A DNA stretch of 23,925 nt, from contig NZ_MTSB01000033.1 of NCBI RefSeq assembly GCF_002093745.1, positions 1 to 23,925 of the forward strand. The letters run 5' to 3'. Below are positions 116 through 16,903 of this stretch, one piece after another. Below the pieces are notes generated by a model. That model did no database searches, was not told the DNA's origin, and saw only the letters and a program-made list of their open reading frames with translations. A program made the translations under genes and the position numbers. The number at the start of each line of letters is the position of its first letter. Positions within the stretch are counted from its first letter, which is position 1. The DNA comes from Pseudomonas graminis. Its GTDB lineage: Bacteria; Pseudomonadota; Gammaproteobacteria; Pseudomonadales; Pseudomonadaceae.

Positions 116-2110
116 TCAACGCACCAGGTGCAGGAACTGCATGTGCCGCTCGTACTGGTCGAGCACGTCGTTGATGACTTGTTCCTTGGTGTAGCCCACC
201 AGGTCGTAATCCTGACTGCCCTCGCTCAGGTGGACTTCGGCGCGATAATAGCGGCGGTTGTTCAGTTGCTTGGAGCCCATGCCACCTCGCGCGAACGACG
301 GGGTGAAGAAGCCTTTCATCTGTACCTGGTAGATGAACGGGCGCTCTTCGCCGTGGCCGATTTCCAGGGTCACCGAGTCGTTGGACGGGTCTGGCACGTT
401 GACGACGTTCAAGCCCTTCTCGACAAACACCGACGTCACGTCTTCAATCGCCGGGCGCACGGTCTGGTCGAGGAAGCGGTACACCTCGTCTCGCGACGGG
501 TAATGCACAGCCTGGCTGAGGCGCTGACGCCAGCCGCCGCGTCGCGAACCGGACACCGGCGCCAACGAGTACAGCTGCGCGATCTTGCGCTGAGACTCCA
601 TGACGAACGCTTTGTGCAGGCCCCACATCATCAGCAGCAGGATCAGCGAGAACGGCAGCGAGGTCAGGACCACCGCCGATTTCAGCGCGTCGATACTGCC
701 CGAGAACAACAGGCCGCTGGTGATCAATGCCGTCGCAACACCCCAGAACACACGCAGCCATTTCGGCCCGTCTTCGTCGGGGTTGCCACCTTTGGCCGAG
801 AGCGTCGACAGCACCACCGTGCCCGAATCGGCAGAGGTGACGAAGAACACGAAGCTGATGAACACCGTGACGGCGATCACCGTCTTGCTCCACGGATAGG
901 TTTCCAGCAGCAGGTACAGCGTCATCGACGGATCATCGATGGCCGACTGGCCCAACGCGACCATGCCGTGGTTGAGCACTTGATCGATGGCGCTGTTGCC
1001 GAAGATCGACATCCAGGCCAGGGTGAAGCCCAGCGGGATCAGCAGCACACCGAAAACGAATTCACGGATGGTCCGGCCACGGGAAATACGGGCAATGAAC
1101 AGGCCGACAAAAGGCGACCAGGCAATCCACCAGGCCCAGTAGAACACGGTCCAGCCGCCCAGCCAGTCGCTCGGCTCGTTATAGGCGTAAACATCGAAAC
1201 TCTTGCTCGGCAACGCGCCCAGGTAGTCACCGATGTTCTGCACCAGCGTATTGAGCAAATGCTGGGTCGGGCCGGCAAACAGCACGAACAGCAGCAGCGC
1301 ACAGGCCAGCAGCATGTTGATGTCGGACATGACACGCACGCCTTTGTCGACACCGGCAATGGCCACCAGAATCGCCGCACCCATCATCAGGGTGATCAAG
1401 CCGACCTGAATCCAGTGGGTGTGCGCCACGCCAAACAAGTAATCCAGACCGGAGTTCAGGTGCAGCACACCAAACCCCATGTCTGCGCCCAGCCCGAAGA
1501 TGGTCGCGATGATGCCGAAGCCATCGACCGCGTAGCCGATAGGGCCGTTGATGCGCTTGCCGATCAGCGGATACAGCGCTGAACGCAAGGCCAGTGGCAG
1601 GTTGTGTCGATAGGCGAAATAGGCCAGCGCCATGCCGACGAAGGCAAAGACGCCCCAGCCATGCAGGCCCCAGTGCAGAAACAGCAATTGCATGCCCTGC
1701 CGAGCGGCTTCGGTGGTTCCACCTTCGCCTTGGGGCGGTTGCAGCAAGTGTGTCAGCGGTTCTGAAACGCAGAAGAAGAACAGCGTAATGCTGATCCCGG
1801 CGGCGAACAGCATGCCGGCCCACGACAGGTAACTGAACTCGGGCTCGTCGTGGTCGGCACCGAGCTTGATCTTGCCGAAGCCCGACAAGGCGGTGACCAC
1901 CACGAAGACCAGGTACAGGGTCATGACCATCATGTAATACCAGCCGACCGTATTGGCCGCCCAGTTCTGGGCAGCCAGCAGCCATGCGCCGCTGGCTTGC
2001 GGGAACGCGATGACGATGATGCCGAAGATCAGGATGAAGCTCGCAGCGAAATAGAACACTGGCGCGTTCATGCGGACCGTGCCGCTGGGAGAAGTGCTCG
2101 GAGAACTCAT
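116..2110 (-). CDS. betT: BCCT-family choline/betaine transporter, BetT-like
   Basis: This 664-residue inner-membrane protein belongs to the betaine/choline/carnitine transporter family. It has about twelve hydrophobic segments between residues 18 and 500. The family Trp-rich segment is at about 320-345 (W320, W325, W327, W328, W331, followed by SPFVGLFIARISRGR), and AAGISITLFFF near 103-113 sits where the substrate/ion-coupling loop of the family lies. A hydrophilic C-terminal tail of about 150 residues follows, as in the long BetT proteins that respond to osmotic strength. The ATG start is supported by GGAGG about 10 bases upstream. A BetI-like palindrome about 100 bp upstream favours choline as substrate and betaine-linked control. 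Carnitine or glycine betaine cannot be excluded. It is transcribed away from the hut operon and is not part of it. Confidence 0.85.
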   Translation of the reverse strand: MSSPSTSPSGTVRMNAPVFYFAASFILIFGIIVIAFPQASGAWLLAAQNWAANTVGWYYMMVMTLYLVFVVVTALSGFGKIKLGADHDEPEFSYLSWAGMLFAAGISITLFFFCVSEPLTHLLQPPQGEGGTTEAARQGMQLLFLHWGLHGWGVFAFVGMALAYFAYRHNLPLALRSALYPLIGKRINGPIGYAVDGFGIIATIFGLGADMGFGVLHLNSGLDYLFGVAHTHWIQVGLITLMMGAAILVAIAGVDKGVRVMSDINMLLACALLLFVLFAGPTQHLLNTLVQNIGDYLGALPSKSFDVYAYNEPSDWLGGWTVFYWAWWIAWSPFVGLFIARISRGRTIREFVFGVLLIPLGFTLAWMSIFGNSAIDQVLNHGMVALGQSAIDDPSMTLYLLLETYPWSKTVIAVTVFISFVFFVTSADSGTVVLSTLSAKGGNPDEDGPKWLRVFWGVATALITSGLLFSGSIDALKSAVVLTSLPFSLILLLMMWGLHKAFVMESQRKIAQLYSLAPVSGSRRGGWRQRLSQAVHYPSRDEVYRFLDQTVRPAIEDVTSVFVEKGLNVVNVPDPSNDSVTLEIGHGEERPFIYQVQMKGFFTPSFARGGMGSKQLNNRRYYRAEVHLSEGSQDYDLVGYTKEQVINDVLDQYERHMQFLHLVR

Positions 2111-2597: not shown

Positions 2598-2706
2598 TAG
2601 AGACAGGCTAAATGTCCTGCACGCTACCGGACTGAATCAGCCTGCTTCGCCAGGCACTGCTCGCCCTTGATCGGGCTGGTTGGGATTGATCGCTGAGGAT
2701 TTTTTT

Positions 2707-4404
2707 GTGACCGAGAATAATCAAGACCTGAAGCAGGGCTGGACCCGCCATCGCGCCGGCGAGGTCCGTGCAGCCCGCGGCACTCAACTGACCGCCAAGA
2801 GCTGGCTGACCGAAGCGCCGTTGCGCATGCTGATGAACAACCTTGACCCGGAAGTCGCCGAAAACCCCAATGAGCTGGTGGTCTATGGCGGCATCGGCCG
2901 CGCAGCGCGCAACTGGGAGTGCTACGACAAGATTGTCGAAAGCCTCACCCACCTTAACGATGACGAAACCCTGCTGGTGCAGTCCGGCAAACCGGTCGGC
3001 GTGTTCAAGACCCACAGCAATGCCCCGCGCGTGCTGATTGCCAACTCCAACCTGGTGCCGCACTGGGCCAGTTGGGAGCATTTCAACGAACTGGATGCCA
3101 AGGGCCTGGCGATGTACGGCCAGATGACCGCGGGCAGCTGGATCTACATCGGCAGCCAGGGCATTGTTCAAGGCACTTACGAAACCTTCGTCGAAGCCGG
3201 TCGCCAGCACTATGACGGCAACCTCAAAGGCCGCTGGGTGCTGACTGCCGGTCTGGGCGGTATGGGCGGCGCACAGCCACTGGCCGCGACACTGGCCGGC
3301 GCCTGTTCGCTGAACATCGAATGCCAGCAAAGCCGCATCGATTTCCGCCTCAAGACGCGCTACGTCGACGAGCAGGCGGCTGATCTGGACGATGCCTTGG
3401 CGCGCATCGCCAGGTACACCGCCGAAGGCAAGGCCATTTCCATCGCCCTGTGCGGCAATGCGGCAGAGATTCTGCCGGAAATGGTCCGTCGCGGCGTTCG
3501 TCCGGACATGGTCACCGACCAGACCAGCGCTCACGATCCACTCAACGGCTATTTGCCCAAAGGCTGGACCTGGGACGAGTACCGCGCCCGCTCGGTGAGT
3601 GAGCCGGCCAATGTCGTCAATGCCGCCAAACAGTCGATGGCTGAACACGTCGAGGCCATGCTGGCCTTCCAGCAAGCCGGTATTCCGACCTTCGACTACG
3701 GCAACAACATTCGCCAGATGGCCAAGGAAGTCGGCGTGGCCAATGCCTTCGACTTCCCCGGCTTCGTCCCGGCCTACATCCGTCCGCTGTTTTGCCGTGG
3801 CATCGGGCCGTTCCGCTGGGCCGCGCTGTCGGGTGACCCGCAGGACATCTACAAGACGGACGCCAAGGTCAAAGAACTGATCCCGGACGACGAACACCTG
3901 CACAACTGGCTGGACATGGCCCGCGAGCGCATCAGTTTTCAGGGCTTGCCCGCACGCATCTGCTGGGTTGGCCTGGGTCAGCGCGCCCGGCTCGGTCTGG
4001 CGTTCAACGAAATGGTGCGCAGCGGCGAGCTGTCGGCACCGGTGGCGATCGGTCGCGATCATCTGGACTCCGGTTCGGTCGCCAGCCCCAACCGCGAAAC
4101 CGAATCCATGCGTGACGGCTCCGACGCAGTCTCCGACTGGCCGCTGCTTAACGCCCTGCTCAACACCGCCAGCGGCGCGACCTGGGTGTCGCTGCACCAC
4201 GGCGGCGGCGTGGGCATGGGCTTTTCGCAGCACTCCGGGATGGTGATCGTCTGCGACGGTACGGATGAAGCCGCCGAACGGATCGCCCGCGTACTGCACA
4301 ACGACCCGGCCACCGGGGTGATGCGCCATGCCGACGCCGGATACGACATTGCCATCGACTGTGCCAAAGAGCAGGGCTTGAACCTGCCGATGATCGGACG
4401 TTAA
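2707..4404 (+). CDS. hutU: Urocanate hydratase (urocanase)
   Basis: Second enzyme of histidine breakdown: adds water to urocanate to give imidazolone propionate, using tightly bound NAD+ as an electrophile. The 565-residue cytosolic protein matches the family length (about 557). Visible marks are [17 protein letters not shown] near 60-76, the NAD-binding glycine loop [10 protein letters not shown] at 182-191, the active-site cysteine in [17 protein letters not shown] (C419, equivalent to C410 of P. putida urocanase), and a [15 protein letters not shown] block near the C terminus. The GTG start at 2707 is chosen because GAGGA at 2695-2699 lies seven bases upstream; a TTG at 2680 in the same frame has no such support. 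It is the first gene of the hut operon, directly behind the sigma-54/HutC control region. Confidence 0.96.
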
Positions 4405-4410
4405 GGGCGC

Positions 4411-4430
4411 TGTCGGCCATCAGGCCGACA
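4411..4430 (+). promoter_or_regulatory. Intercistronic hairpin after hutU
   Basis: TGTCGGCC and GGCCGACA form a perfect 8-bp stem with a 4-base loop, starting seven bases after the hutU stop. No T-tract follows, so it is more likely a mRNA-stabilising or processing structure, or a partial attenuator, than a terminator. It lies in the 113-bp gap before the binding-protein gene. Confidence 0.6.
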
Positions 4431-4517
4431 AACCTCGTGGACGGGCATTAACACGCCCAGGGGCCGGATGCCTGATTGAAGCTGCCGTCATCCATTTCAC
4501 GCTTGGGAGCATCGACA

Positions 4518-5486
4518 ATGAATATGAAAAAGGCCCTGTTGACCACACTGGTATCCGCTGGCCTGCTTGCCAGCGCAGGCGCGAGCCAGGCCGCCAACTG
4601 GTGTGAGTCCGGCAAGCCGGTGAAATTCGCCGGTCTGAACTGGGAAAGCGCCATGCTGCTGACCGACATTCTGCAGGTCGTGCTGAACAAAGGTTACGGC
4701 TGTGCGGTGGATGCCCTGCCCGGCAACTCCATCGCCATGGAAAACGCACTGGGCACCAACGACATCCAGATTTTCGCCGAAGAATGGGTCGGCCGCAGCG
4801 AGGTCTGGAACAAGGCCGCTGCCGCCGGGAAAGTGGTCGGTGTGGGCGCGCCCATCGTCGGTGCTGTAGAAGGCTGGTACGTGCCGCGCTACGTGATCGA
4901 AGGCGATGCCAAACGCAAGCTGGAAGCCAAGGCACCCGACCTGAAATCCATCAGCGATCTGGCCCGGTATTCGGCGGTGTTCAAGGATCAGGAAGAGCCC
5001 GACAAAGGCCGCTTCTACAACTGCCCGGCGGGCTGGACCTGTGAGCTGGAAAACAGCGAAATGCTCAAGAGCTACGGCCTGGAAAGCAAGTACACCAACT
5101 TTCGTCCAGGCACCGGCCCTGCGCTGGATGCAGCTATTCTCTCCAGCTACAAACGTGGCGAGCCGATTCTGACCTACTACTGGTCGCCGACGCCGCTGAT
5201 GGGCCAGGTGGATCTGGTGCGTCTGGAGGAGAAAGCCGGGGTCAACAAAACGATTGATATCAAGGTCGGTGTTTCCAAGGTGTTCCACGACGAAGCCCCC
5301 GAACTGGTCGCGGTACTGGAGAAGGTCAACCTGCCTATAGACCTGCTCAACCAGAACCTGGGGCGCATGGCCAAAGAACGCATCGAATCGCCGAAGCTGG
5401 CGAAAATTTTCCTGAAAGAACACCCGGAAGTCTGGCACAAATGGGTCAGTGAAGACGCCGCGAAAAAGGTGGACGCTTCGCTGTAA
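4518..5486 (+). CDS. hutX: HutX, periplasmic substrate-binding protein of ABC transporter
   Basis: This 322-residue exported protein belongs to the ProX/OpuAC-like class of binding proteins. It captures substrate in the periplasm for HutW and HutV. A signal peptide is clear: MNMKKALL, a hydrophobic core, and an A-S-Q-A cleavage site after residue 25. The mature protein opens NWCESGKPVKFAGLNWES, with family-like blocks ALPGNSIAMENAL and IFAEEWVGRSEVWNKA. The start at 4518 has GGGAG eight bases upstream; an earlier in-frame ATG at 4476 would spoil the signal peptide. Its place in the hut operon indicates histidine or urocanate as ligand. The family otherwise carries betaine, choline and proline, so dual use is possible. 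Confidence 0.87.
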   Translation: MNMKKALLTTLVSAGLLASAGASQAANWCESGKPVKFAGLNWESAMLLTDILQVVLNKGYGCAVDALPGNSIAMENALGTNDIQIFAEEWVGRSEVWNKAAAAGKVVGVGAPIVGAVEGWYVPRYVIEGDAKRKLEAKAPDLKSISDLARYSAVFKDQEEPDKGRFYNCPAGWTCELENSEMLKSYGLESKYTNFRPGTGPALDAAILSSYKRGEPILTYYWSPTPLMGQVDLVRLEEKAGVNKTIDIKVGVSKVFHDEAPELVAVLEKVNLPIDLLNQNLGRMAKERIESPKLAKIFLKEHPEVWHKWVSEDAAKKVDASL

Positions 5487-5492
5487 ACGTCC

Positions 5493-5521
5493 GGGCAGCC
5501 GGCTTGATGAGTCGTCTGCCC
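5493..5521 (+). promoter_or_regulatory. Inverted repeat between hutX and hutW
   Basis: GGGCAG (5493-5498) pairs with CTGCCC (5516-5521) across a 17-base loop. It sits just after the binding-protein stop, where such structures often keep the binding-protein transcript in excess over the membrane components. There is no T-tract. This is modest evidence. Confidence 0.4.
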
Positions 5522-5559
5522 TGATCGTTGACCCGATACACCTTATGTGAGAGCCGCTT

Positions 5560-6411
5560 ATGTTCCCTGAAAGCTTCACTTTCTCGATCGCCAACTGGGT
5601 CAACGACGGGGTCGACTCGTTGGTGACCCAGTACGGCGATGTGTTCCGGCACATCTCCGACACCCTGCTGTGGGCCATCGTCAACCTCGAAAGCCTGCTG
5701 CGCATGGCCCCGTGGTGGCTGATGCTGATCATCGTCGGCGGTATCGCCTGGCACGCGACGCGCAAGATCGTCACGACGGTGGTGATCGTCGGCCTGCTGT
5801 TTCTGGTCGGCGCGGTCGGGTTGTGGGACAAGCTGATGCAGACATTGGCGCTGATGCTGGTCGCCACGATCATTGCGGTACTGATCGGCATTCCGCTGGG
5901 CATCCTGTCCGCGCGCAGCAATCGCCTGCGCTCGGTGCTGATGCCGCTGCTGGACATCATGCAGACCATGCCCAGCTTCGTTTACCTGATCCCGGTGCTG
6001 ATGCTGTTCGGGCTGGGCAAGGTCCCGGCCATCTTCGCCACCGTGATCTATGCCGCGCCGCCATTGATCCGCCTGACCGACCTGGGCATTCGCCAGGTAG
6101 ACGGCGAAGTGATGGAAGCGATCAACGCGTTCGGCGCCAATCGCTGGCAGCAACTGTTCGGCGTGCAATTGCCGCTGGCCATGCCGAGCATCATGGCCGG
6201 CATCAACCAGACCACCATGATGGCGCTGTCGATGGTGGTCATTGCGTCGATGATCGGCGCACGCGGGCTGGGCGAAGACGTGCTGGTGGGCATTCAGACC
6301 CTCAACGTCGGGCGCGGGCTGGAGGCCGGGCTGGCCATCGTCATTCTGGCGGTCGTCATCGACCGTATCACGCAGGCCTATGGCCGCCCACGGCATGAGG
6401 CGCACAAATGA
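5560..6411 (+). CDS. hutW: HutW, ABC transporter permease
   Basis: A 283-residue inner-membrane subunit of the proline/glycine-betaine type of importer. Hydrophobic segments are visible at about 51-64, 70-88, 94-113, 137-166, 219-234 and 256-269. The cytoplasmic EAA loop that contacts the ATPase is at about 183-212 ([14 protein letters not shown], then [14 protein letters not shown]). The ATG at 5560 gives a normal start; upstream GTGAGAG is only a weak ribosome binding site. Its end overlaps the ATPase start by four bases (ATGA), so translation of the two is probably coupled. With HutX and HutV it should form a histidine uptake system. Confidence 0.9.
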
Positions 6412-7238
6412 GCAGCGTGGAACCGAACAAGATCGTCGTCAAAAACGTGTTCAAGATTTTCGGCAACCGCTCGAAGGATGCGCTGGCGTTGATCAAACAG
6501 AACCAGAGCAAGGATCAGGTGCTGGCACAGACCGGCTGCGTGGTCGGGGTCAACGACCTGTCGCTGTCGATTGGCAGCGGCGAAATTTTCGTCATCATGG
6601 GCCTGTCCGGTTCCGGCAAATCGACGCTGGTGCGCCACTTCAACCGGCTGATCGACCCGACCAGCGGCGAGATTCTGGTCGATGGCGAAGACATCCTGCG
6701 TTACGACATGGAGGCCCTGCGCCAATTCCGTCGGCACAAGATCAGCATGGTGTTTCAAAGCTTCGGCCTGTTGCCGCACAAGACCGTGCTGGCCAACGTG
6801 GCCTACGGCCTGAAAGTGCGCGGCGAGAGCAAGGCGCTGTGTCAGGAACGCGCGCAGCACTGGGTCACCACCGTCGGCCTGAAGGGCTACGAAAACAAAT
6901 ACCCGCATCAGCTTTCTGGCGGCATGCGCCAACGGGTCGGCCTGGCACGAGCGCTGGCAGCCGATACCGACATCATCCTGATGGACGAAGCGTTCAGCGC
7001 TCTCGACCCGTTGATTCGTGCCGAGATGCAGGACCAGTTGCTGGAACTGCAAGCCAGCCTTCATAAAACCATCGTGTTCATCACCCACGATCTGGACGAA
7101 GCCGTGCGCATCGGCAACCGCATCGCGATCCTCAAGGACGGACGGTTGATTCAGGTGGGCACGCCGAAAGAAATTCTCCATTCGCCTGCCGACGATTATG
7201 TGGATCGTTTCGTTCAGCGCCGCGTGGCCACTCTTTAA
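6408..7238 (+). CDS. hutV: HutV, ABC transporter ATP-binding protein
   Basis: A 276-residue ATPase of the ProV/OpuAA class that powers uptake through HutW. Motifs in order: Walker [10 protein letters not shown] (65-73), Q-loop in [12 protein letters not shown] (about 115-126), signature LSGGMRQRV (169-177), Walker B IILMDE (189-194), D-loop and the switch histidine H227 in ITHDLDEA. The N-terminal helix region before Walker A (residues 20-45, [19 protein letters not shown]) is typical of ProV-type ATPases. The protein ends about 40 residues after the H-loop and lacks the C-terminal CBS pair that lets ProV/OpuA sense ionic strength, so it is probably not osmotically gated. The start overlaps the hutW stop. 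Confidence 0.92.
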
Positions 7239-7250
7239 GGACTGTTGCAG

Positions 7251-8792
7251 ATGTCGCGAGCCGAACAGATCGTCATCGGTGAAGCCCCGCTGGGCTGGCA
7301 GGACGTCGTCACCGTAGCCCGGTATGGCGCGCAATTGCGTCTGTCGGACGCCGCATGGGCACGAATCGATAACGCCCAGGCCATCGTTCAGCAGATCGTG
7401 GCCAGCGGCGAACGCGCCTATGGCGTGAACACCGGGCTGGGCGCGCTGTGCAATGTGTCGCTACAAGGTGACGAACTCAGCCGCCTGTCACGCAATACGC
7501 TGCTCAGCCATGCCTGCGGCGTCGGTGCGCCGCTGACCGACGAACAGACCCGCGCAATCATCTGCTCCGCCATTCTCAACTACAGCCAGGGCAAATCCGG
7601 CATCCACCGCCAGGTAGTCGAAGCGCTGCTGGCCTTGCTCAACCGGGGCATTACCCCGCAAGTACCGTCGCAGGGCTCGGTGGGTTACCTGACCCACATG
7701 GCGCACGTCGGTATTGCGCTGCTGGGCGTTGGTCAGGTCAGTTATCGCGGGCGAATCGTTCCGGCTGAGCAGGCGTTGAATGAGGAACATCTGGCCCCGG
7801 TAACGCTCGGCGCCAAGGACGGGCTGTGCCTGGTCAACGGCACACCCTGCATGACCGGCCTGAGCTGTCTGGCCATCGCCGATGCCGAGCGTCTGAGCCA
7901 ATGGGCCGACGTGATCGGCGCAATGACCTTCGAAGCGTTGCGCGGCCAACTCGATGCGTTCGATGAAAGCATCCTCGCGCTCAAACCCCATCCGGGCATG
8001 CAGCAGGTGGGCAAGAACCTGCGCAGCTTGTTGGCCGGCAGCGAAGTACTGGCCAGCAGCCAGGGCATTCGCACTCAGGACGCGCTGAGCATTCGCTCGA
8101 TTCCCCAGGTACACGGCGCGACCCGCGACCAGTTGGACCACGCCATTCGCCAGATCGAGACCGAACTGAACTCGGTGACGGACAACCCGATGCTGCTCGG
8201 CACGCCCGAGGCCTGGCGCGTGGTGTCTCAGGCCAACCCGCATGGCCAGTCGGTGGCGATGGCGGCGGACGTGCTGTGCATGGCGTTCGCTGAACTGGGT
8301 TCCATCGCCGAGCGTCGGCTGGACCGCCTGATCAACCCGATGGTCAGTGGCCTGCCGGCCTTTCTGGTCAGCGAGCCGGGGGTCAACTCGGGGATGATGA
8401 TCGTGCAGTATGTCGCCGCCTCGCTGTGCGCAGAAAACCGTCAAATGGCGCAACCGGCGGTGGTCGACAACTACGTCACGTCCGGCCTGCAGGAAGATCA
8501 CCTGAGCATGGGCACCAGCGCCGCGCTCAAGCTGCACAAGGTGCTGGGCAACGCCACGCAGGTTCTGGCCATCGAGTATCTGCTGGCAGCTCAGGCATTC
8601 GAATTTCTCAAGACGCAGCGTTTGGGCGTCGGTACAAACGCGGCCTGGCGGCTGCTGCGCGAGCGGGTCCCAGCCTACGACGAAGACCGCTGGCTGGCCC
8701 CGGATATCGCCAGCAGCGCCGCGCTGCTCAAAGACGATACATCGCTGGAAAGGGTTTTCCAGCACTGCCGCGATCATGCGGCAACCCCATAA
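7251..8792 (+). CDS. hutH1: HutH1, HutH-like ammonia-lyase homologue lacking the MIO triad
   Basis: A 513-residue member of the aromatic amino acid ammonia-lyase superfamily, clearly homologous to the next gene. Some active-site positions known from P. putida HutH survive: Y57 in YGVNTG, H87 in LLSHACGVG, Q276, R282, and QEDH at 414-417. The stretch that should read [14 protein letters not shown] reads GSVGYLTHMAH at 142-152, exactly three residues shorter, so the Ala-Ser-Gly that cyclises into the MIO electrophile is missing. The equivalents of Y280 and F329 are also changed (QDALSIR and ANPHG). The frame is intact and long, so it is not decaying. Ordinary histidine deamination is unlikely; a regulatory, binding or different catalytic role is possible. 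The ATG at 7251 is preferred to TTG at 7245 because AAGGA at 7237-7241 is well spaced only for the former. Confidence 0.85.
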   Translation: MSRAEQIVIGEAPLGWQDVVTVARYGAQLRLSDAAWARIDNAQAIVQQIVASGERAYGVNTGLGALCNVSLQGDELSRLSRNTLLSHACGVGAPLTDEQTRAIICSAILNYSQGKSGIHRQVVEALLALLNRGITPQVPSQGSVGYLTHMAHVGIALLGVGQVSYRGRIVPAEQALNEEHLAPVTLGAKDGLCLVNGTPCMTGLSCLAIADAERLSQWADVIGAMTFEALRGQLDAFDESILALKPHPGMQQVGKNLRSLLAGSEVLASSQGIRTQDALSIRSIPQVHGATRDQLDHAIRQIETELNSVTDNPMLLGTPEAWRVVSQANPHGQSVAMAADVLCMAFAELGSIAERRLDRLINPMVSGLPAFLVSEPGVNSGMMIVQYVAASLCAENRQMAQPAVVDNYVTSGLQEDHLSMGTSAALKLHKVLGNATQVLAIEYLLAAQAFEFLKTQRLGVGTNAAWRLLRERVPAYDEDRWLAPDIASSAALLKDDTSLERVFQHCRDHAATP

Positions 8793-8848
8793 AAAAGCGG
8801 CTGACGGCCACAAGCCGTTGCTGACATCACTCAAGGAGTCGTTGCATC

Positions 8849-10396
8849 GTGACCACCTCATCTGCCCAGACGCTGAACCTGATCCCCGGCCAATTGACCC
8901 TGGCGCAACTGCGCGCCATTCATCAGCAGCCGGTCACCCTGACGCTGGACAGCAGCGCGAATCAGCAGATCGACGACAGCGTCGCCTGCGTCGAGCGCAT
9001 TCTGGCCGAGAACCGGACTGCCTACGGCATCAACACCGGTTTCGGCCTGCTGGCGTCCACGCGGATCGCCAGCGAGGACCTGGAAAACCTGCAACGCTCA
9101 CTGGTGCTGTCGCATGCAGCCGGTGTCGGCCAGCCGATCAGCGATGATCTGGTGCGGCTGATCATGGTGCTCAAGGTCAACAGCCTGAGCCGTGGTTTCT
9201 CGGGCATCCGTCGGGTGGTGATCGATGCGCTGATCGCGCTGATCAATGCCGAGGTTTACCCACACATCCCGCTCAAGGGTTCGGTCGGCGCTTCCGGCGA
9301 CCTGGCTCCGCTGGCGCACATGTCGCTGGTGCTGCTGGGTGAAGGCAAGGCGCGCTACAAAGGTGAATGGCTGAATGCCGTCGATGCACTGGCTGTCGCG
9401 GGGTTGCAGCCGCTGACGCTGGCGGCCAAGGAAGGGCTCGCCCTGCTCAACGGCACGCAAGTGTCCACCGCTTACGCACTGCGCGGCCTGTTCGAGGGTG
9501 AAGACCTGTTCGCCGCCGCACTGACCTGTGGCTCGCTGACGGTCGAAGCGGTGCTCGGCTCACGCTCGCCTTTCGATGCGCGCATTCACGCGGCACGCGG
9601 TCAGCGCGGGCAGATCGATGCGGCGGCCTGCTACCGCGATCTGCTGGGCGAAAGCAGTAGCGTGTCGGAGTCGCACCGCAATTGCGACAAGGTTCAGGAC
9701 CCCTACTCGCTGCGCTGCCAGCCTCAAGTGATGGGTGCATGCCTGACCCAGTTGCGCCAGGCCGCCGAGGTGCTGGAAATCGAATCCAACGCGGTGTCTG
9801 ACAACCCGCTGGTGTTCGCTGCCGAGAACGACGTCATATCCGGTGGCAATTTTCATGCGGAGCCTGTCGCGATGGCGGCAGACAATCTGGCGCTGGCCAT
9901 CGCCGAGATTGGCTCGCTCAGCGAACGCCGTATTTCGTTGATGATGGACAAGCACATGTCGCAGCTGCCGCCGTTCCTGGTGGCCAACGGAGGCGTCAAT
10001 TCCGGCTTCATGATCGCGCAGGTCACGGCCGCCGCGCTGGCCAGCGAAAACAAGGCGCTGGCCCATCCGCACAGTGTCGACAGCCTGCCGACCTCTGCCA
10101 ATCAGGAAGACCATGTGTCGATGGCCCCGGCCGCTGGCAAGCGGTTATGGGAAATGGCGGAAAACGTTCGCGGGATTCTTGCCGTAGAATGGTTGGCTGC
10201 CTGCCAGGGTCTGGACTTGCGCGAGGGGCTGAAAACCTCTCCAAAGCTGGAGCAAGCCCGCAGCCTGTTGCGCAGCAAGGTCCCGTTCTATGAAAAGGAC
10301 CGCTTTTTTGCACCGGACATCGAAGCTGCCAGTCAGCTGTTGTCCTCCACTTGCCTGAACCCGCTGGTTCCTGCACGTCTGCTACCGAGTCTGTGA
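8849..10396 (+). CDS. hutH2: Histidine ammonia-lyase (HutH2)
   Basis: First enzyme of the pathway: removes ammonia from L-histidine to give trans-urocanate. The 515-residue cytosolic protein has the complete catalytic set: the MIO-forming A148-S149-G150 in [15 protein letters not shown]59 in YGINTGFG, H89 in [12 protein letters not shown] at 201-204, Y286 and R289 in QDPYSLR, the NFH motif and NQEDHVSM. The GTG start at 8849 is preceded by AAGGAG at 8833-8838. It follows the MIO-less copy after 56 bp; the two are related along their length, so one arose by an old duplication or acquisition. It is the copy expected to support growth on histidine. Confidence 0.96.
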
Positions 10397-10402
10397 TGCA
10401 CC

Positions 10403-10422
10403 GCGAGCCTGGCAGGGCTCGC
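10403..10422 (+). promoter_or_regulatory. Intercistronic hairpin after hutH2
   Basis: GCGAGCC (10403-10409) and GGCTCGC (10416-10422) form a perfect 7-bp stem with a 6-base loop, seven bases past the hutH2 stop. No T-run follows. It may protect upstream mRNA from 3' exonucleases. Confidence 0.55.
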
Positions 10423-10440
10423 CTTGGTCATCGCTGCGGG

Positions 10441-10470
10441 AAGCCGGATGCAGGCGTCCTCGCGGCTTTT
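10441..10470 (+). terminator. Weak terminator-like structure before hutT
   Basis: AAGCCG (10441-10446) pairs with CGGCTT (10463-10468). The stem partly extends inward through GGA/TCC and runs into TTTT (10467-10470). The loop is long and the T-run short, so it would be leaky at best. It could lower expression of hutT, hutI and hutG relative to the upstream genes. Confidence 0.3.
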
Positions 10471-10498
10471 GCCATACCTGTAATGAAATGGACCTGAA

Positions 10499-11875
10499 AT
10501 GACGTCACAAGATGGTTTGAAACGCGGGTTATCCGCCCGCCACATCCGCTTCATGGCCCTGGGCTCTGCCATCGGCACAGGGTTGTTCTACGGCTCGGCC
10601 TCGGCGATTCAACAGGCCGGTCCCGCCGTACTGCTGGCGTACCTGATCGGCGGCGCGGCGGTGTACATGGTGATGCGTGCGCTGGGCGAAATGGCCGTCC
10701 ACGACCCGGTGTCCGGTTCGTTCAGCCATTACGCCACGCGTTACATGGGACCGCTGGCCGGTTTCGTGCTGGGCTGGACCTACGCTTTCGAGATGATCAT
10801 CGTCTGCCTGGCCGACGTGACCGCCTTCGGCATTTACATGGGTTTCTGGTTTCCGGAAGTGCCACGCTGGATCTGGGTGCTGGGCATCGTGTTCCTGATC
10901 GGCGCGCTCAACCTGTGCAACGTGAAGGTCTTCGGCGAAACCGAATTCTGGCTGTCCATCCTCAAGGTCAGCGCCATTGTGGCCATGATCGTGGCGGGTT
11001 TCGGCATCATGATTTTCGGCATCGGCAGCTCGACCAGCGGCACCGAAATCGGCATCAGCAACCTGTGGGCGCACGGGGGGGTCATGCCCAACGGCGTGGC
11101 CGGTCTGATCGCCTCGTTCGCCGTGGTGATGTTTGCCTTCGGCGGTATCGAGATCATCGGTATTACCGCCGGTGAGGCCAAAGACCCGCAGCGCAGCCTG
11201 CCGCAGGCGATCAACGCGGTGCCATTGCGCATTCTGCTGTTCTACGTGCTGACGCTGTTTGTGCTGATGTGCATTTACCCCTGGCCGCAGATCGGCACCC
11301 AGGGCAGCCCGTTCGTGCAGATTTTCGACAATCTGGGCATCGCCTCGGCAGCGACCATTCTCAACATCGTGGTGATCTCGGCGGCGGTGTCAGCCATCAA
11401 CAGCGACATCTTCGGCGCAGGCCGGATGATGTACGGCCTGGCGCGTGACGGTCAGGCTCCGGCGAGCTTTGCGCGTCTGTCGCGTCAGGGCGTGCCGTGG
11501 ATGACCGTGCTGGTAATGGGCGTGACGCTGCTGGGCGGCGTGCTGCTCAATTACCTGATCCCGAAAAACGTGTTTCTGCTGATCGCGTCGCTGGCAACCT
11601 TCGCCACCGTCTGGGTCTGGCTGATGATCCTGCTGACTCAGGTCGCCATGCGCCGCTCGATGAGCCGCGAAGAGGCTGCGCACCTGAAATTCGCGGTGCC
11701 GTTCTGGCCTTACGGACCGGCTGCCGCCATCGTCTTCATGCTGTTCATCTTCGGCGTGCTGGGCTATTTCCCGGACAACCGTGCAGCCTTGATCGTCGGC
11801 GCCATCTGGATTGTGCTGCTGCTCATCGCCTACAGGTTGTGGGTCAAGCCAAAGGCGCTCAACAAAACCTATTGA
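10499..11875 (+). CDS. hutT: HutT, amino acid permease for histidine or urocanate
   Basis: A 458-residue inner-membrane permease of the AAT family (relatives: ProY, GabP, histidine permeases). It opens with the conserved [15 protein letters not shown] (about 17-31), the first-helix motif of amino acid/polyamine/organocation transporters, and has about twelve hydrophobic segments to residue 450. [19 protein letters not shown], near 219-238, is another family block. Proton-driven histidine uptake is the likely role. Pseudomonads may carry separate urocanate and histidine permeases, and sequence alone does not decide which this is. Only a weak ribosome binding site (TGGA) precedes the ATG, and a five-codon open frame ends two bases upstream. 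Fifteen bases separate it from hutI. Confidence 0.87.
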
Positions 11876-11890
11876 CCCAAGAGGCCCGGA

Positions 11891-13096
11891 ATGAAAACGC
11901 TCTGGAAGAACTGTCACATCGCAAGCATGGCACACGGCAAATACTCGATCATCGAGGATGCCGCCATCGTGACCTCCGGAGCGCTCATCGAGTGGATCGG
12001 GCCTCAGGCTGAACTGATCGAGCCGGAGCATGACAACTGCATTGATCTGGGCGGCGCGTGGGTCACGCCCGGCCTGATCGACTGCCACACGCACACGGTC
12101 TTCGGTGGCAACCGCAGCGGCGAGTTCGAACAGCGCCTGCAAGGGGTGAGCTACGCCGAGATCGCCGCAGCAGGCGGTGGTATCGCCAGCACGGTGCGCG
12201 CGACTCGCGCCGCCAGCGAAGATGAACTGTATGCCAGCGCCGAGCGTCGTCTGCGGCACTTGCTCAAGGACGGCGTGACCACCGTCGAAATGAAATCAGG
12301 CTACGGGCTGGACCTGGAGAACGAGCGCAAGATCCTTCGCGTGATCCGTCGTCTGGGCAACACGCAGCCGGTCACCGTGCGCGCCACTTGCCTGGCTGCC
12401 CACGCGCTGCCACCGGAATACGCCGAGCGTGCCGACGACTACATCAAGCACATCTGCAACGACCTGCTTCCCGCACTGGCGGCCGAAGGGCTGGTGGACG
12501 CGGTGGATGCGTTCTGTGAATACCTGGCGTTCTCGCCTGCGCAGGTCGAGCAGGTGTTCATCACGGCAGGGCAACTGGCGCTGCCGGTGAAACTGCATGC
12601 CGAGCAGCTTTCTTCGCTGGGCGGGTCGAGTCTGGCAGCGCGCTACAAAGCACTGTCGGCGGACCATCTGGAGTTCATGACCGAAGACGACGCCATTGCC
12701 ATGGCCGCTGCCGGAACCGTCGCTGTATTGCTGCCGGGGGCCTTCTACTTCCTGCGTGAAACTCAACTGCCGCCGATGGACGCGCTGCGCAAGCATGGCG
12801 TGCCTATCGCGATTGCTACCGACCTGAACCCCGGCACGTCGCCCGGCCTGTCGTTGCGCCTGATGCTCAACATGGCCTGCACGCTGTTCCGCATGACGCC
12901 TGAGGAAGCGCTGGCGGGCGTCACGTTCAATGCTGCCAAAGCGCTGGGCATGAGCGCGACACACGGTTCGCTGGAGGTCGGCAAGGTGGCGGATTTCGTG
13001 GCGTGGAACATCGAACGACCGGCTGATCTGGCGTACTGGCTGGGCGGCGATCTGGACAAACGCATCGTGCGCCACGGCGTCGAATCATCGATCTGA
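11891..13096 (+). CDS. hutI: Imidazolonepropionase
   Basis: Third pathway enzyme: hydrolyses 4-imidazolone-5-propionate to N-formimino-L-glutamate. The 401-residue cytosolic protein is an amidohydrolase with a metal site. Visible ligands and catalytic residues are H66 and H68 in [13 protein letters not shown]236 and E239 in [13 protein letters not shown]259 in ADHLEF, and D311 in [11 protein letters not shown]. Length matches the family. AAGAGG at 11879-11884 gives a good ribosome binding site for the ATG. Its product must next pass through HutF to become N-formylglutamate, which HutG then cleaves; hutF is not in the window. Confidence 0.97.
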
Positions 13097-13109
13097 AGGA
13101 GTGTGCCCT

Positions 13110-13910
13110 GTGGATAACGTTCTGACGTTCAAACGTGGCCGCGTCCCGCTGCTGATCAGCATGCCGCACGCCGGTCTGAAGCTGACGCCGGTGGTCGAAG
13201 CGGCCTTAGTGGACGAGGCACTGAGCCTGCCGGACACCGACTGGCACATCCCGCGCCTGTATGATTTTGCCGCCGAACTGGGCGCAAGTACGCTGGCCGC
13301 CGAGTATTCGCGGTTTGTCATCGACCTCAATCGGCCGTCAGACGACAAACCGATGTACGTGGGTGCAACCACCGGCCTGTTCCCGTCGATCCTGTTTGAT
13401 GGCGTGCCGTTGTTCAAGGACGGCCAGACGCCAAGTGCGGAAGAACGTGCGCGGTACCTGGAGCAGATCTGGACGCCCTATCACCAGACGCTTGAGCAGG
13501 AACTGCAGCGGATGCGCGATGAGTTCGGCTATGCGCTGCTGTTCGACGCGCACTCGATTCGCGGGCACATCCCGCACCTGTTCGATGGACGGCTGCCGGA
13601 CTTCAACCTGGGCACTTTCAATGGGGTCAGCTGCGACCCGGAACTCGCCAGCCGAATGGAGCAGGTCTGCGCAGCGGCCAAGGACTACAGCCATGTGCTG
13701 AACGGGCGCTTCAAGGGCGGCCACATCACCCGCCACTACGGAGACCCGGCCAATAACATCCACGCCGTGCAACTGGAACTGGCGCAAAGCACCTACATGG
13801 ATGAGTTCGTGCCCTTCCACTACCGCCCCGACCTGGCCGACCCTACGCGCGCCGTGCTTAAAACGTTGCTGGAAACCTTCATTGCCTGGGGGCAGGAACG
13901 GTTTGGCTGA
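13110..13910 (+). CDS. hutG: N-formylglutamate deformylase
   Basis: Last enzyme of the five-step Pseudomonas pathway: hydrolyses N-formyl-L-glutamate to glutamate and formate. The 266-residue protein has family blocks LLISMPHAG (14-22), SRFVIDLNRP (67-76), LLFDAHSIRGHIPHLFDG and GRFKGGHITRHYG. The GTG at 13110 is chosen because AAGGAG at 13096-13101 lies eight bases upstream; a GTG at 13101 would overlap that site. It is the final gene of the operon; REP sequence follows. Presence of this deformylase, rather than a formiminoglutamase, means the cell uses the HutF route. Confidence 0.96.
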   Translation: MDNVLTFKRGRVPLLISMPHAGLKLTPVVEAALVDEALSLPDTDWHIPRLYDFAAELGASTLAAEYSRFVIDLNRPSDDKPMYVGATTGLFPSILFDGVPLFKDGQTPSAEERARYLEQIWTPYHQTLEQELQRMRDEFGYALLFDAHSIRGHIPHLFDGRLPDFNLGTFNGVSCDPELASRMEQVCAAAKDYSHVLNGRFKGGHITRHYGDPANNIHAVQLELAQSTYMDEFVPFHYRPDLADPTRAVLKTLLETFIAWGQERFG

Positions 13911-14112: not shown

Positions 14113-16371
14113 TCACTTCTTGAGCAATCGCAACCCGTTGAACACCACCAGCAGGCTCACGCCCATGTCGGCAAACACGGCCATCCACATGGTCGCCAGG
14201 CCGGCAAAGGTGATGCCGATGAACAGCACCTTCGTCACAATCGCCAGCACAATGTTCTGCCTGAGCACCGCAGACGTCCGACGTGACAGGCGAATGAATG
14301 TCGGAATCTTGCGCAGATCATCGTCCATCAAGGCGACATCTGCCGTCTCGATAGCCGTATCCGTACCGGCAGCCGCCATCGCAAAACCAATCTCGGCACG
14401 AGCCAGTGCCGGCGCATCGTTGATCCCGTCCCCCACCATGCCCACTCGATGGTTGCGGGCGTAAAGCGCCTCGATGGCCCCCAGCTTGTCGGCAGGCAAC
14501 AGATTGCCCTGCGCCTCATCGATGCCGACCTGATCAGCAATCGCCTTGGCCGTGTGCGGGTTATCGCCGGTCAGCATGACGGTCTTGATGCCCAGTTCAT
14601 GCAACTGCGCGATGGCTTCACGGCTGGTTTCCTTCACGGTATCGGCCACCGCGAACAGCGCTATCGGACCTGACGCATCCAGCAACAGCACCACGGTCTT
14701 GCCCTGCATTTCCAGTGCATCCAGCTTCGCTTCCAGTGCTGGCGAGCAAAGGCCCAGTTCTTCGACCAACCGATGGTTGCCCAAGTGGTACATCTGGCCG
14801 TTGACTTCGCCCTTCACACCCCGCCCGCCCAACGCTTCGAACGCAGTCACTTCATGCAGCACCAAGCTGTCATCGGCGGCCTTGGCAATCGCTTGGGAAA
14901 CCGGGTGGTCAGAGCGAACCGCAAGGCTTGCGGCAATGGCCGGCGCGCTGTCGGCGACGGCAGCGTTGAGTGGCACATAATCCGTCTGCACCGGCTTGCC
15001 GTGCGTGAGGGTGCCGGTCTTGTCGAGGGCCAGGTAATCAAGTTTCTCGCCCATCTCCAGATAGACGCCGCCCTTGATCAGGATGCCTTTGCGCGCTGCC
15101 GCTGCCAGACCGCTGACAATCGTCACTGGCGTCGAAATCACCAATGCGCAAGGGCAGGCAACGACCAGCAGCACCAGCGCACGGTAGATCCAGTCAAACC
15201 ATTCACCGCCAAAGAACAGCGGCGCGATCAGAGCCACTGCCAAGGCGACGATGAACACTACCGGCGTGTAGATCCGCGAAAAGCTGTCGACAAAACGTTG
15301 AGTCGGCGCGCGTGAGCCTTGAGCCGCTTCCACCGCGTGAATGATCCGCGCCAGCGTCGAGTTGTTTGCGGCGGCGGTCACGCGGTACTCCAACGACCCT
15401 GCCTGGTTAATGGTGCCCGCGAAAATCTTGTCGCCGACCGTTTTCTCGACCGGTAGGCTTTCACCTGTAATCGATGCCTGATCAATCGTCGAGTTACCGG
15501 ACACCACTTCACCGTCCAGCCCCACACGCTCGCCGGGCTTGATGCGGACAATCGCTTCCAGTTCGACGTTTTTGGCTTCAACTTCCTGCCAGCTGCCATC
15601 CGCCTGCCTGACGGTGGCGAGTTCGGGCGTCAGTTGCATAAGCCCGCTGATTGCATTGCGGGCACGGTCCAGCGACTTGGCTTCGATCAGCTCGGCCACG
15701 GTGAACAGGAACATGACCATTGCTGCTTCAGGCCACTGACCGATCAGGATCGCACCGGTCACGGCAATGCTCATCAGGGCATTGATGTTCAGGTTGAAGT
15801 TTTTGAGCGCGATCCAGCCCTTCTTGTAAGTCGTCAGCCCGCAACTGAAGATCGACACCAACGCCAGCAACGCCACGACCCAGGTCGGGCCAAGCGAAGC
15901 GAAATGAACCACCTCCGCGCCCAATGCAGCCACGCCGGAGAGCGCCAACGGCCACCAGTGTTTCTTCACCACGGGAGCCGGCTCGGCAGACTCAGCGCCT
16001 TCCTCGACCGGTTCGGCCTGCATGCCCAGCGAACTGATGGCGTCGCGGATAGGGTCAGTGGACGGCAAATCATGCCAGACGCCCAGCATGCGATTGATCA
16101 GGTTGAATTCAAGCTTCTGCACGCCGGCCAGTTTGCCCAGCTTGTTCTGGATCAAGGTCTGCTCGGTCGGGCAGTCCATCGCTTCAATACGGAAGCTGCT
16201 CAGACGTCCACCGGGCGCCGCCGCGTCATTGAACGTCACCACCGCAGGTTGCGCATCGCTGGAACAGCACGAGTGCGCAGGGGCTGCGGGCTTTTGCTCG
16301 TGCGCGTGCTCTCCGTGATCATGCTCGTGATCGTGGTCATGTGCGGGGGAAGTCTTGATGGTCGTGCCCAT
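14113..16371 (-). CDS. cadA: Cadmium/zinc-exporting P1B-type ATPase
   Basis: A 752-residue inner-membrane pump that exports Cd2+, Zn2+ and probably Pb2+ with ATP. In order: a His-rich N terminus (HDHDHEHDHGEHAHE at 11-25), a CC pair at 35-36, a heavy-metal domain with MDCPTE (65-70), TGES (302-305), the metal-binding CPC (406-408), the phosphorylated aspartate D450 in DKTGTLTHG, the HP motif (489-490) and GDGIND (647-652). The start is set at 16371 because GGAG lies eight bases upstream; a longer frame to 16422 has an atypical leader that runs into the operator. It is divergent from cadR, which should control it. Confidence 0.94.
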   Translation of the reverse strand: MGTTIKTSPAHDHDHEHDHGEHAHEQKPAAPAHSCCSSDAQPAVVTFNDAAAPGGRLSSFRIEAMDCPTEQTLIQNKLGKLAGVQKLEFNLINRMLGVWHDLPSTDPIRDAISSLGMQAEPVEEGAESAEPAPVVKKHWWPLALSGVAALGAEVVHFASLGPTWVVALLALVSIFSCGLTTYKKGWIALKNFNLNINALMSIAVTGAILIGQWPEAAMVMFLFTVAELIEAKSLDRARNAISGLMQLTPELATVRQADGSWQEVEAKNVELEAIVRIKPGERVGLDGEVVSGNSTIDQASITGESLPVEKTVGDKIFAGTINQAGSLEYRVTAAANNSTLARIIHAVEAAQGSRAPTQRFVDSFSRIYTPVVFIVALAVALIAPLFFGGEWFDWIYRALVLLVVACPCALVISTPVTIVSGLAAAARKGILIKGGVYLEMGEKLDYLALDKTGTLTHGKPVQTDYVPLNAAVADSAPAIAASLAVRSDHPVSQAIAKAADDSLVLHEVTAFEALGGRGVKGEVNGQMYHLGNHRLVEELGLCSPALEAKLDALEMQGKTVVLLLDASGPIALFAVADTVKETSREAIAQLHELGIKTVMLTGDNPHTAKAIADQVGIDEAQGNLLPADKLGAIEALYARNHRVGMVGDGINDAPALARAEIGFAMAAAGTDTAIETADVALMDDDLRKIPTFIRLSRRTSAVLRQNIVLAIVTKVLFIGITFAGLATMWMAVFADMGVSLLVVFNGLRLLKK

Positions 16372-16402
16372 TCGTTGCGCTCCAGAATTCTGCTTGTTGC
16401 CA

Positions 16403-16433
16403 AGTGAACACCCTGTAGCCACTATAGGGTCAA
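16403..16433 (-). promoter_or_regulatory. cadA promoter with MerR-type 19-bp spacer
   Basis: On the minus strand a -35 TTGACC (16428-16433) is separated by 19 bp from a -10-like TTCACT (16403-16408). Overlong spacers are the mark of promoters untwisted by MerR-family activators. The arrangement closely resembles CadR/PbrR-controlled promoters. Confidence 0.75.
16410..16430. promoter_or_regulatory. CadR operator
   Basis: A 21-bp dyad has arms ACCCTGTAG and CTATAGGGT around a 3-base centre and fills the spacer of the cadA promoter. Each arm has one mismatch to its partner. This is the standard position for a MerR-family dimer. Confidence 0.85.
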
Positions 16434-16456: not shown

Positions 16457-16903
16457 ATGAAAATCGGCGAACTGGCAAAACTGACCGACACCCAGGTCGA
16501 AACCATCCGTTACTACGAACGTGAAGGCCTGCTGCCCGCCCCGGCCCGCAGTGACGGCAATTACCGGCTGTATACCCAGGCGCACATGGAACGCCTGTCG
16601 TTCATCCGCAATTGCCGCAGCCTGGACATGACCCTGGAAGAGATTCGCAACCTGCTGAACCTGCGCGACAGCCCGCAGGACCAGTGCGAGAGCGTTAACG
16701 CACTGATTGACGAACACATCGAACACGTCAACGCCCGGGTCGCGAGCCTGCAAGCACTCCAGGAACAGTTGCTCGACCTGCGCCGCCGTTGCAGCGATGA
16801 TGCCGCAGCGCATTGCGCGATTCTGGAAAGGCTGGAAGTGACCGGAGCGGTTGCAGCGCCAGAGGGTGAGCCTTCACATGTGGGCAGAAGTCACGGGCAT
16901 TGA
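16457..16903 (+). CDS. cadR: CadR, MerR-family Cd(II)/Zn-responsive regulator
   Basis: A 148-residue transcription factor. The winged helix at the N terminus is typical (MKIGELAKLT, then ETIRYYEREGLLP at 15-27, then NYRLY). A coiled-coil dimerisation helix follows at about 80-110. The metal site is given by C77, C112 and C120, close to the three cysteines of CadR/PbrR/ZntR. The His-containing tail (HVGRSHGH, 141-148) resembles the second site of P. putida CadR. It is divergent from cadA with 85 bp between starts, and the operator lies between, so it should activate cadA on metal binding and probably limit its own expression. ZntR or PbrR are near alternatives. Confidence 0.92.
   Translation: MKIGELAKLTDTQVETIRYYEREGLLPAPARSDGNYRLYTQAHMERLSFIRNCRSLDMTLEEIRNLLNLRDSPQDQCESVNALIDEHIEHVNARVASLQALQEQLLDLRRRCSDDAAAHCAILERLEVTGAVAAPEGEPSHVGRSHGH

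What the first reader, a model, noticed from the sequence alone, without database searches (positions are those of the whole stretch)
7674..7706. HutH1 lacks exactly the MIO-forming Ala-Ser-Gly triad
Seen: HutH2 reads [14 protein letters not shown], while HutH1 reads GSVGYLTHMAH, three residues shorter with flanks conserved. Known: the ASG triad cyclises to MIO, the electrophile required by histidine, phenylalanine and tyrosine ammonia-lyases. HutH1 also loses the equivalents of P. putida Y280 and F329 but keeps the Tyr, His, Gln, Arg and Glu positions. Inference: an intact, operon-encoded pseudoenzyme or neofunctionalised lyase, perhaps a histidine/urocanate sensor, a HutH2 hetero-oligomer partner, or an enzyme with MIO-free chemistry. 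The excision of just the triad in an otherwise well-kept protein suggests selection rather than decay.
Basis: partly seen in the sequence, partly recalled or inferred. Interest (0 to 1): 0.75.

Follow-up and report, generated by a model that had tools for sequence, protein, structure and literature searches.

The report
Cofactor-free histidase cousin, probable betaine lyase
A gene labelled as a second histidine-degrading enzyme has lost the enzyme's built-in chemical cofactor but kept its other catalytic parts, and its company across many bacteria suggests that it splits a trimethylated form of histidine instead of histidine itself.

Summary
HutH1 (7251-8792, +) reads GSVGYLTHMAH at exactly 7674-7706, three residues shorter than [14 protein letters not shown] of HutH2, so the Ala-Ser-Gly triad that makes MIO is gone. 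This is no local oddity: of 199 Pseudomonas genomes 137 carry HutH1, none of these with the triad, and the loop recurs in Enterobacterales, Burkholderiales, rhizobia, Halomonadaceae and Firmicutes. It does not look like a pseudoenzyme: HAL Tyr53, His83, Gln277, Arg283 and Glu414 are kept in 126 of 126 MIO-less proteins; median dN/dS is 0.12. Lost are MIO and the residues beside it (Tyr280, Phe329). Betaine-type transporters adjoin HutH1 in about 48 of 84 loci, but lie near canonical hutH in only 3 of 31. In Halomonadaceae, BCCT adjoins 12 of 13 HutH1 and 0 of 17 canonical loci. Urocanase accompanies HutH1 in 28 of 28 genomes tested. Six genomes have HutH1 without a hut-type histidase. Best reading: a MIO-free lyase that, like ergothionase, expels trimethylamine from a histidine betaine, most likely hercynine, giving urocanate. 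Fold, conservation and context are shown; substrate and reaction are inferred. Whether MIO was lost separately from ergothionase is open (p-AU 0.37).

The parts
2680..4404 (+). hutU, urocanase
   Evidence: NCBIfam hutU 1017.9 bits (cut-off 375); below the cut-offs of the thiourocanate hydratase models
4518..5486 (+). hutX, periplasmic binding protein of the glycine-betaine type
   Evidence: Pfam OpuAC 204.6 bits; no NCBIfam model at 1e-20; best PDB relative 7yle, a glycine betaine/proline binding protein
5560..6411 (+). hutW, ABC permease of the choline/betaine type
   Evidence: Pfam BPD_transp_1; nearest NCBIfam model choline ABC permease, 293.1 bits, below its cut-off of 363
6408..7238 (+). 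hutV, ABC ATPase of the betaine/proline/choline family
   Evidence: NCBIfam proV subfamily 362.2 bits, cut-off 326.6
7251..8792 (+). hutH1, MIO-less HAL-fold lyase
   Evidence: AF2 model pLDDT 92.4, pTM 0.92
7674..7706 (+). GSVGYLTHMAH loop without Ala-Ser-Gly
8849..10396 (+). hutH2, canonical MIO histidase ([14 protein letters not shown])
   Evidence: NCBIfam hutH 737 bits, cut-off 539.15; loop
10499..11875 (+). hutT-like amino-acid permease
   Evidence: Pfam AA_permease
11891..13096 (+). hutI, imidazolonepropionase
   Evidence: NCBIfam hutI 483.6 bits, cut-off 298.15
13101..13910 (+). hutG, N-formylglutamate deformylase
   Evidence: NCBIfam 397.1 bits, cut-off 278.75

Best explanation
HutH1 is an active, MIO-free lyase of the histidase fold. 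HutXWV (in other lineages a BCCT carrier, an OpuAC-type ABC system or a polar amino-acid ABC system) brings in a histidine betaine, most likely hercynine (N-alpha-trimethylhistidine). HutH1 holds imidazole and carboxylate with the residues that histidase uses (His87, Gln276, Arg282), takes the beta-proton with Tyr57 and expels trimethylamine, giving urocanate, which HutU, HutI and HutG degrade. MIO serves to make a plain amino group leave; a quaternary ammonium leaves without that help, has no lone pair to add to MIO, and needs the room that MIO, Tyr280 and Phe329 take up. Shown: triad loss, retained catalytic residues, purifying selection, fold, linkage to betaine-type transporters and to hutU. 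Inferred: that it is catalytic, the substrate, the leaving group, the residue roles (transferred from histidase, from general knowledge) and the roles of the new conserved Asp220, His288, Arg359 and Tyr387.
For: (1) HAL Y53, H83, Q277, R283, E414 kept in 126/126 and N195 in 125/126 of the MIO-less GY-type proteins, while Tyr280 is Leu in 121/126 and Phe329 is Pro or Ala in 119/126; Asp220, Arg359 and Tyr387 are 126/126 (Tyr146 too, but it defines the group). Ergothionase also has Leu at 280, and Lys where HutH1 has Arg359 and Tyr387. (2) HutX is OpuAC, HutV proV family. HutX (E<=1e-120) is in 128 of 137 HutH1-bearing and 1 of 62 HutH1-less Pseudomonas genomes; Fisher p 3e-40, not corrected for kinship. 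(3) The importer is swapped for another betaine kind: BCCT in Pseudomonas G041, G063, G133; in the Halomonadaceae BCCT adjoins HutH1 in 12/13 loci and 0/17 canonical loci, p 1.5e-7; an OpuAC-type ABC system in Paenibacillus eucommiae. Five BCCT genes checked match Pfam BCCT at 385-400 bits. (4) hutU in 28 of 28 HutH1-bearing genomes tested; the two hutU proteins scanned are plain urocanase, not thiourocanate hydratase. (5) P. eucommiae has HutH1 and no other family member; five Halomonadaceae genomes have HutH1 and no hut-type HAL. (6) dN/dS 0.12. (7) Ergothionase releases trimethylamine without MIO (PMC13405746 passages).
Against: No activity data. 29 of 84 HutH1 loci have polar amino-acid (HisJ-like) importers and 7 had none labelled, so the betaine signal is not universal. 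PMC5343134 (passages) lists HutXYZ of Pseudomonas and HisJMPQ among known histidine uptake systems. The Salinicola-type BCCT and the P. eucommiae ABC proteins score below the NCBIfam cut-offs for named betaine transporters, so their substrate is open. PMC12772324 (passages) reports that deleting a gene called hutG and tagged PA5093 hurts growth on histidine or urocanate and is complemented; by synteny with P. aeruginosa PA7 (L064) the gene next to hutI (PA5092) would be HutH1, so either the tag is wrong or HutH1 matters there. 31 of 34 HutH1 genomes also have a canonical HAL. Where ergothionase has Lys, HutH1 has Tyr387. HutH1 dN/dS is twice that of HutH2.
Confidence: 0.55

Rival explanations
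1. MIO-free lyase for another N-methylated or modified histidine (ergothioneine, mono- or dimethylhistidine) or another aromatic betaine.
For: Same anatomy and transporters as the best reading; ergothionase is a HAL-fold TMA-lyase; an ABC transporter specific for ergothioneine is known (PMC9732360 passages). GY-type proteins and ergothionase may form one MIO-less group (p-AU 0.37).
Against: The partner hutU scans as plain urocanase and below the thiourocanate hydratase cut-offs in the window and in P. eucommiae, which asks for urocanate as product; ergothioneine would give thiourocanate. Salinicola corii has a separate ergothionase-like gene beside its HutH1 cluster.
Confidence: 0.17
2. Non-catalytic paralogue: a histidine/urocanate-binding regulator or a HutH2 hetero-oligomer partner.
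For: No MIO; hutH2 lies directly downstream in many Pseudomonas loci. I recall that Zhang and Rainey 2007 called one of two hutH copies of P. fluorescens SBW25 nonfunctional (recalled; not held).
Against: Acid-base and substrate-binding residues invariant; present without any other family member in P. eucommiae and without a hut-type HAL in five Halomonadaceae genomes; stands as a BCCT-hutH1 pair away from labelled hut genes in Halomonas and Paracoccus loci.
Confidence: 0.15
3. MIO-free histidase acting on plain histidine.
For: P. eucommiae and the Salinicola group have HutH1 with hutU and hutI and no hut-type HAL; HutXWV and HisJ-type systems are listed as histidine importers (PMC5343134 passages).
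Against: An unactivated amino group is a poor leaving group (established view of MIO). 31 of 34 HutH1 genomes keep a canonical HAL. A PAO1 hutH (PA5098) deletion is reported defective on histidine (PMC12772324 passage), although by synteny with PA7 PAO1 should also carry HutH1.
Confidence: 0.08
4. Decaying duplicate of hutH2.
For: dN/dS twice that of HutH2.
Against: dN/dS 0.12; loop kept across phyla; lies in a group apart from HutH2 in the tree.
Confidence: 0.01

Closest known systems
MIO-dependent histidine ammonia-lyase (HutH/HAL, P. putida 1b8f)
   Different: No Ala-Ser-Gly, so no MIO; Tyr280 to Leu, Phe329 to Pro or Ala; conserved Tyr146, Arg359, Tyr387; about 40% identity to the window's HutH2
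Ergothionase (Treponema denticola, 6s7j/6s7q)
   Different: Loop SSIGEGDITTLSHIG instead of GSVGYLTHMAH; Lys instead of Tyr387; Ser instead of Asn195; Phe329 kept; own branch with a Salinicola protein (100/99)
ProU/ChoXWV-type betaine and choline ABC importers
   Same: OpuAC binding protein and proV-type ATPase upstream of hutH1
   Different: Substrate of the window's copy unknown; it follows HutH1, not HutH2, across Pseudomonas genomes

Membership tests
MIO-dependent histidine ammonia-lyase | Ala-Ser-Gly triad that cyclises to MIO | tested here: not met
   GSVGYLTHMAH; orthologues likewise
MIO-dependent histidine ammonia-lyase | Tyr280 and Phe329 at the active site | tested here: not met
   Leu279 and Pro330
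MIO-dependent histidine ammonia-lyase | fold and the other catalytic residues | tested here: met
MIO-dependent histidine ammonia-lyase | deaminates histidine | not testable with these tools
   no assay; it passes the NCBIfam hutH cut-off by 0.35 bit, which gives a name, not a function
Ergothionase | HAL fold without MIO triad | tested here: met
Ergothionase | lies inside the group of T. denticola ergothionase and the Salinicola ergothionase-like protein | tested here: not met
   branch 100/99
Ergothionase | shares one MIO-less ancestor with it, apart from the MIO proteins | tested here: inconclusive
   not rejected, p-AU 0.369; seen in 23% of bootstrap trees
Ergothionase | Lys at the position of HutH1 Tyr387 | tested here: not met
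   that this Lys is catalytic is recalled, not read
Ergothionase | 1,2-elimination of trimethylamine | not testable with these tools
   needs an assay
Pseudoenzyme | catalytic residues degraded beyond the cofactor | tested here: not met
   126/126 or 125/126 kept at the six positions named

The most novel reading that the evidence does not exclude
HutH1 founds a large, so far misnamed family of MIO-free histidine-betaine (hercynine) trimethylamine-lyases that feed a natural betaine into the hut pathway; loss of MIO would be the mark of a quaternary leaving group, as in ergothionase and perhaps independently of it.
Probability: 0.5. Interest if true: 0.82.

Novelty: new variant of a known kind. 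Interest (0 to 1): 0.72.

Why it matters
137 of 199 sampled Pseudomonas genomes carry this protein, and it passes the curated hutH cut-off (539.5 against 539.15 bits) and is named histidine ammonia-lyase in many source records, although it cannot form the histidase cofactor. If the reading holds, it gives a gene for bacterial use of hercynine. Histidine betaine was found in nine of ten cyanobacterial strains (PMC3826126 passage), and in biocrust it is depleted by organisms not among the isolates tested (PMC4595634 passage). It would also test what MIO is for, since the cofactor would be dispensable once the leaving group is quaternary, and would add a source of trimethylamine.

Tried and rejected
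Chance or sequencing error: rejected, the loop is conserved across phyla. Recent decay of a hutH2 copy: rejected by dN/dS and tree. Membership in the ergothionase group: rejected. My first wording that MIO was lost separately from ergothionase was withdrawn after a test: a tree that joins the GY-type proteins with ergothionase is not rejected (p-AU 0.369), and the GY branch itself has 88/86, which is not full support. Viral contigs gave two pattern matches and no relative. The HutX-bearing, lyase-less genome G043 has hutC-like and hutXWV genes near a PheS-related ligase and a prolyl aminopeptidase, which says nothing on substrate. Paper searches (listings seen) showed no report of a MIO-less HutH family or a hercynine lyase.

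Weak points of the counts. The 80 genome loci were fetched partly by the pattern GYLTH[MN]AH, so their loop uniformity is biased; with 46 and 54, were chosen by whole-protein similarity. The 126 GY-type rows are defined by the loop (so Tyr146 is 126 of 126 by definition) and many are close Pseudomonas relatives; they come from 242 distinct full-length rows plus the window's two and ergothionase. Transporter labels come from phmmer against 23 named proteins, were partly spot-checked by Pfam and NCBIfam and miss kinds outside that set. The 3 of 31 control loci with a betaine-type label within 4.5 kb are L163 and L166 (low-scoring hits) and L168 (hutW and hutV, no hutX or hutH1). In one search L096 is counted with the 42 ProU/Cho-type loci through its ATPase; its other subunits resemble the OpuC type. 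The 17 Halomonadaceae control loci are the best-scoring canonical ones for which loci were given, all from HutH1-less genomes, with about 1.5 kb on each side. Counts that combine searches were made by eye. The 20 HutH1-less Pseudomonas loci are 20 of 30 genomes searched. The five Halomonadaceae genomes without hut-type HAL each have one MIO-bearing paralogue of another type ([14 protein letters not shown]), whose activity is unknown.

Full report
What is there. The window is from a Pseudomonas close to P. syringae (best homologues 95% identical). hutU, hutX, hutW, hutV, hutH1, hutH2, an amino-acid permease, hutI and hutG follow one another on the + strand from 2680 to 13910. hutH1 runs from 7251 to 8792. 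Its loop at 7674-7706 reads GSVGYLTHMAH where HutH2 reads [14 protein letters not shown]. HutH1 passes the NCBIfam hutH cut-off, by 539.5 against 539.15 bits, and many source records of its relatives are named histidine ammonia-lyase, others HAL/PAL/TAL family ammonia-lyase.

It is a family, not an accident. 120 of 120 listed best homologues (of 7449) have the loop. In 199 Pseudomonas genomes 134 carry the loop in DNA; three more HutH1 proteins, found through, read GYLSHMAH or GYLAHMAH. Loci from Serratia, Erwinia, Pantoea, Burkholderia, Polaromonas, rhizobia, Halomonas, Salinicola, Paracoccus, Paenibacillus and Sulfobacillus have GS[VA]GYL[TSV]H[MNA]A[HA]. In a 54-row tree the 35 MIO-less GY-type proteins are one side of a branch (88/86; 88% of 200 bootstrap trees), and ergothionase with a Salinicola ergothionase-like protein is another (100/99), on long branches. 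A tree that joins the two MIO-less groups is not rejected (p-AU 0.369), so one or two losses of MIO remain possible.

Its company. In 84 HutH1 loci (80, 4 from plasmids) the nearest upstream transporter on the same strand is a ProU/Cho-type ABC in 42, BCCT in 5, OpuC-type in 1, polar amino-acid ABC in 29, and unlabelled in 7 (L096, among the 42, is OpuC-like by its other subunits). In 31 canonical HAL loci 3 had a betaine-type label, none a BCCT or polar amino-acid one. HutX is in 128 of 137 HutH1-bearing Pseudomonas genomes and in 1 of 62 without. Of 20 HutH1-less Pseudomonas hut loci 19 lack hutXWV. In Pseudomonas G041, G063 and G133 BCCT stands in their place; the two fetched at length read hutU-BCCT-hutH1-hutH2. 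Of 151 genomes from the family of Salinicola corii 13 have HutH1, 12 of them with BCCT immediately upstream and one with hutU there; of 17 canonical HAL loci from that search none has BCCT. Five BCCT genes checked are Pfam BCCT at 385-400 bits, but the Salinicola one is below every NCBIfam cut-off for named BCCT transporters. In the Halomonas and Paracoccus loci BCCT and hutH1 stand as a pair away from labelled hut genes.

Which product? Urocanase was found in 28 of 28 HutH1-bearing genomes tested (16, 13, one shared), in pieces in G205 and as a partial match in G213. The hutU proteins of the window and of P. eucommiae score 1017.9 and 997.3 bits with the urocanase model and stay below the cut-offs of the thiourocanate hydratase models. 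In P. eucommiae HutH1 is the only family match in the genome and lies in the order OpuAC-type ABC genes, hutH1, hutU, hutI. In five genomes of the S. corii family (G199, G338, G378, G442, G463) HutH1 lies between BCCT and hutI, and the other matches are a MIO-bearing paralogue with [14 protein letters not shown] (read in all five; aryl-polyene type is recalled) plus, in G199, the ergothionase-like gene. So HutH1 most likely supplies urocanate. Of 34 genomes searched (three further records are plasmids) 31 have a canonical HAL match of 47-83% identity as well; the exceptions are G199, G202 and G205, where it is in pieces. HutH1 thus adds a feeder route rather than replacing histidase.

Mechanism. 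The established role of MIO is to activate an amino group as a leaving group. A substrate whose nitrogen is already quaternary does not need it and would clash with it. Ergothionase is the known case (PMC13405746, passages: lacks MIO, trimethylamine lyase). With betaine-type importers outside and urocanase downstream, the simplest substrate that yields urocanate is histidine betaine, hercynine. That last step is inference, about 0.55.

Literature. Seen as passages only: PMC13405746, PMC7653990, PMC4595634, PMC9732360, PMC3826126, PMC5343134, PMC12772324, PMC12977541, PMC9002059, PMC8069873. PMC5343134 notes that HutC regulons often include multiple HutH paralogues and, in the passages read, gives them no separate role. 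PMC12772324 uses PA5093 as hutG; synteny with PA7 suggests that PA5093 is HutH1 (PAO1 itself was not looked at). Searches showed, in their listings, no report of a MIO-less HutH family or a hercynine lyase; most subscription papers are missing from that library. Zhang and Rainey 2007 is recalled, not read.

Searches were made for this: they added hutU in the 13 genomes, read the four remaining paralogues, confirmed gene names by models, and removed the claim of a separate loss of MIO. The odds for the best reading did not change, because it does not rest on that claim.

Noticed in passing
L217-L221 (Pseudomonas genomes G129, G141, G095, G079, G070): A second MIO-less subfamily, GSVGYLAVEGH, 36-37% identical to HutH1; in L217 and L220 beside a hutU gene, in four of five beside a polar amino-acid ABC transporter.
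   Followed up: partly
L090:11990-13525 (Salinicola corii): Ergothionase-like protein with loop GSLGAADL, best PDB match 6s7j, followed by an OsmF-like binding protein, an ornithine cyclodeaminase/alanine dehydrogenase-like protein (below cut-offs) and an ABC permease; possibly a separate betaine-breakdown cluster next to hut.
   Followed up: partly
L244, L252 (family of Paenibacillus eucommiae); L216 (Rhizobium leguminosarum genome): Further MIO-less loops GSVGYLAPEAH and GSVGYLIATSH, so the GY group is more diverse than the hut-linked HutH1.
   Followed up: no
L222, L223 (G107, G044): MIO-less HutH1 relatives with GSVGYISHMAH, about 49% identical; no hut gene other than hutH1-like ones was labelled near them.
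   Followed up: no
PMC12772324: The gene tagged PA5093 and called hutG there lies, by synteny with P. aeruginosa PA7 (L064), where HutH1 is; tag or gene identity deserves a check.
   Followed up: partly
L226 (G043): hutC-like and hutXWV genes in a Pseudomonas genome without any histidase-family match.
   Followed up: partly
L227-L230 and others: A second HutX-like binding protein (69-76% identical) in nine Pseudomonas genomes; in the four fetched no hutW or hutV was labelled beside it.
   Followed up: partly
window 14113-16422 (-) and 16457-16903 (+): P-type (E1-E2) ATPase divergent from a MerR-family regulator, an ordinary metal-resistance pair by look.
   Followed up: no
window 116-2110 (-): Choline-type BCCT transporter BetT (817.5 bits, cut-off 695) divergent from hutU.
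   Followed up: no
G205 (Polaromonas sp. P2-4): hutU and the canonical hutH appear in several pieces; gene decay or draft errors.
   Followed up: no
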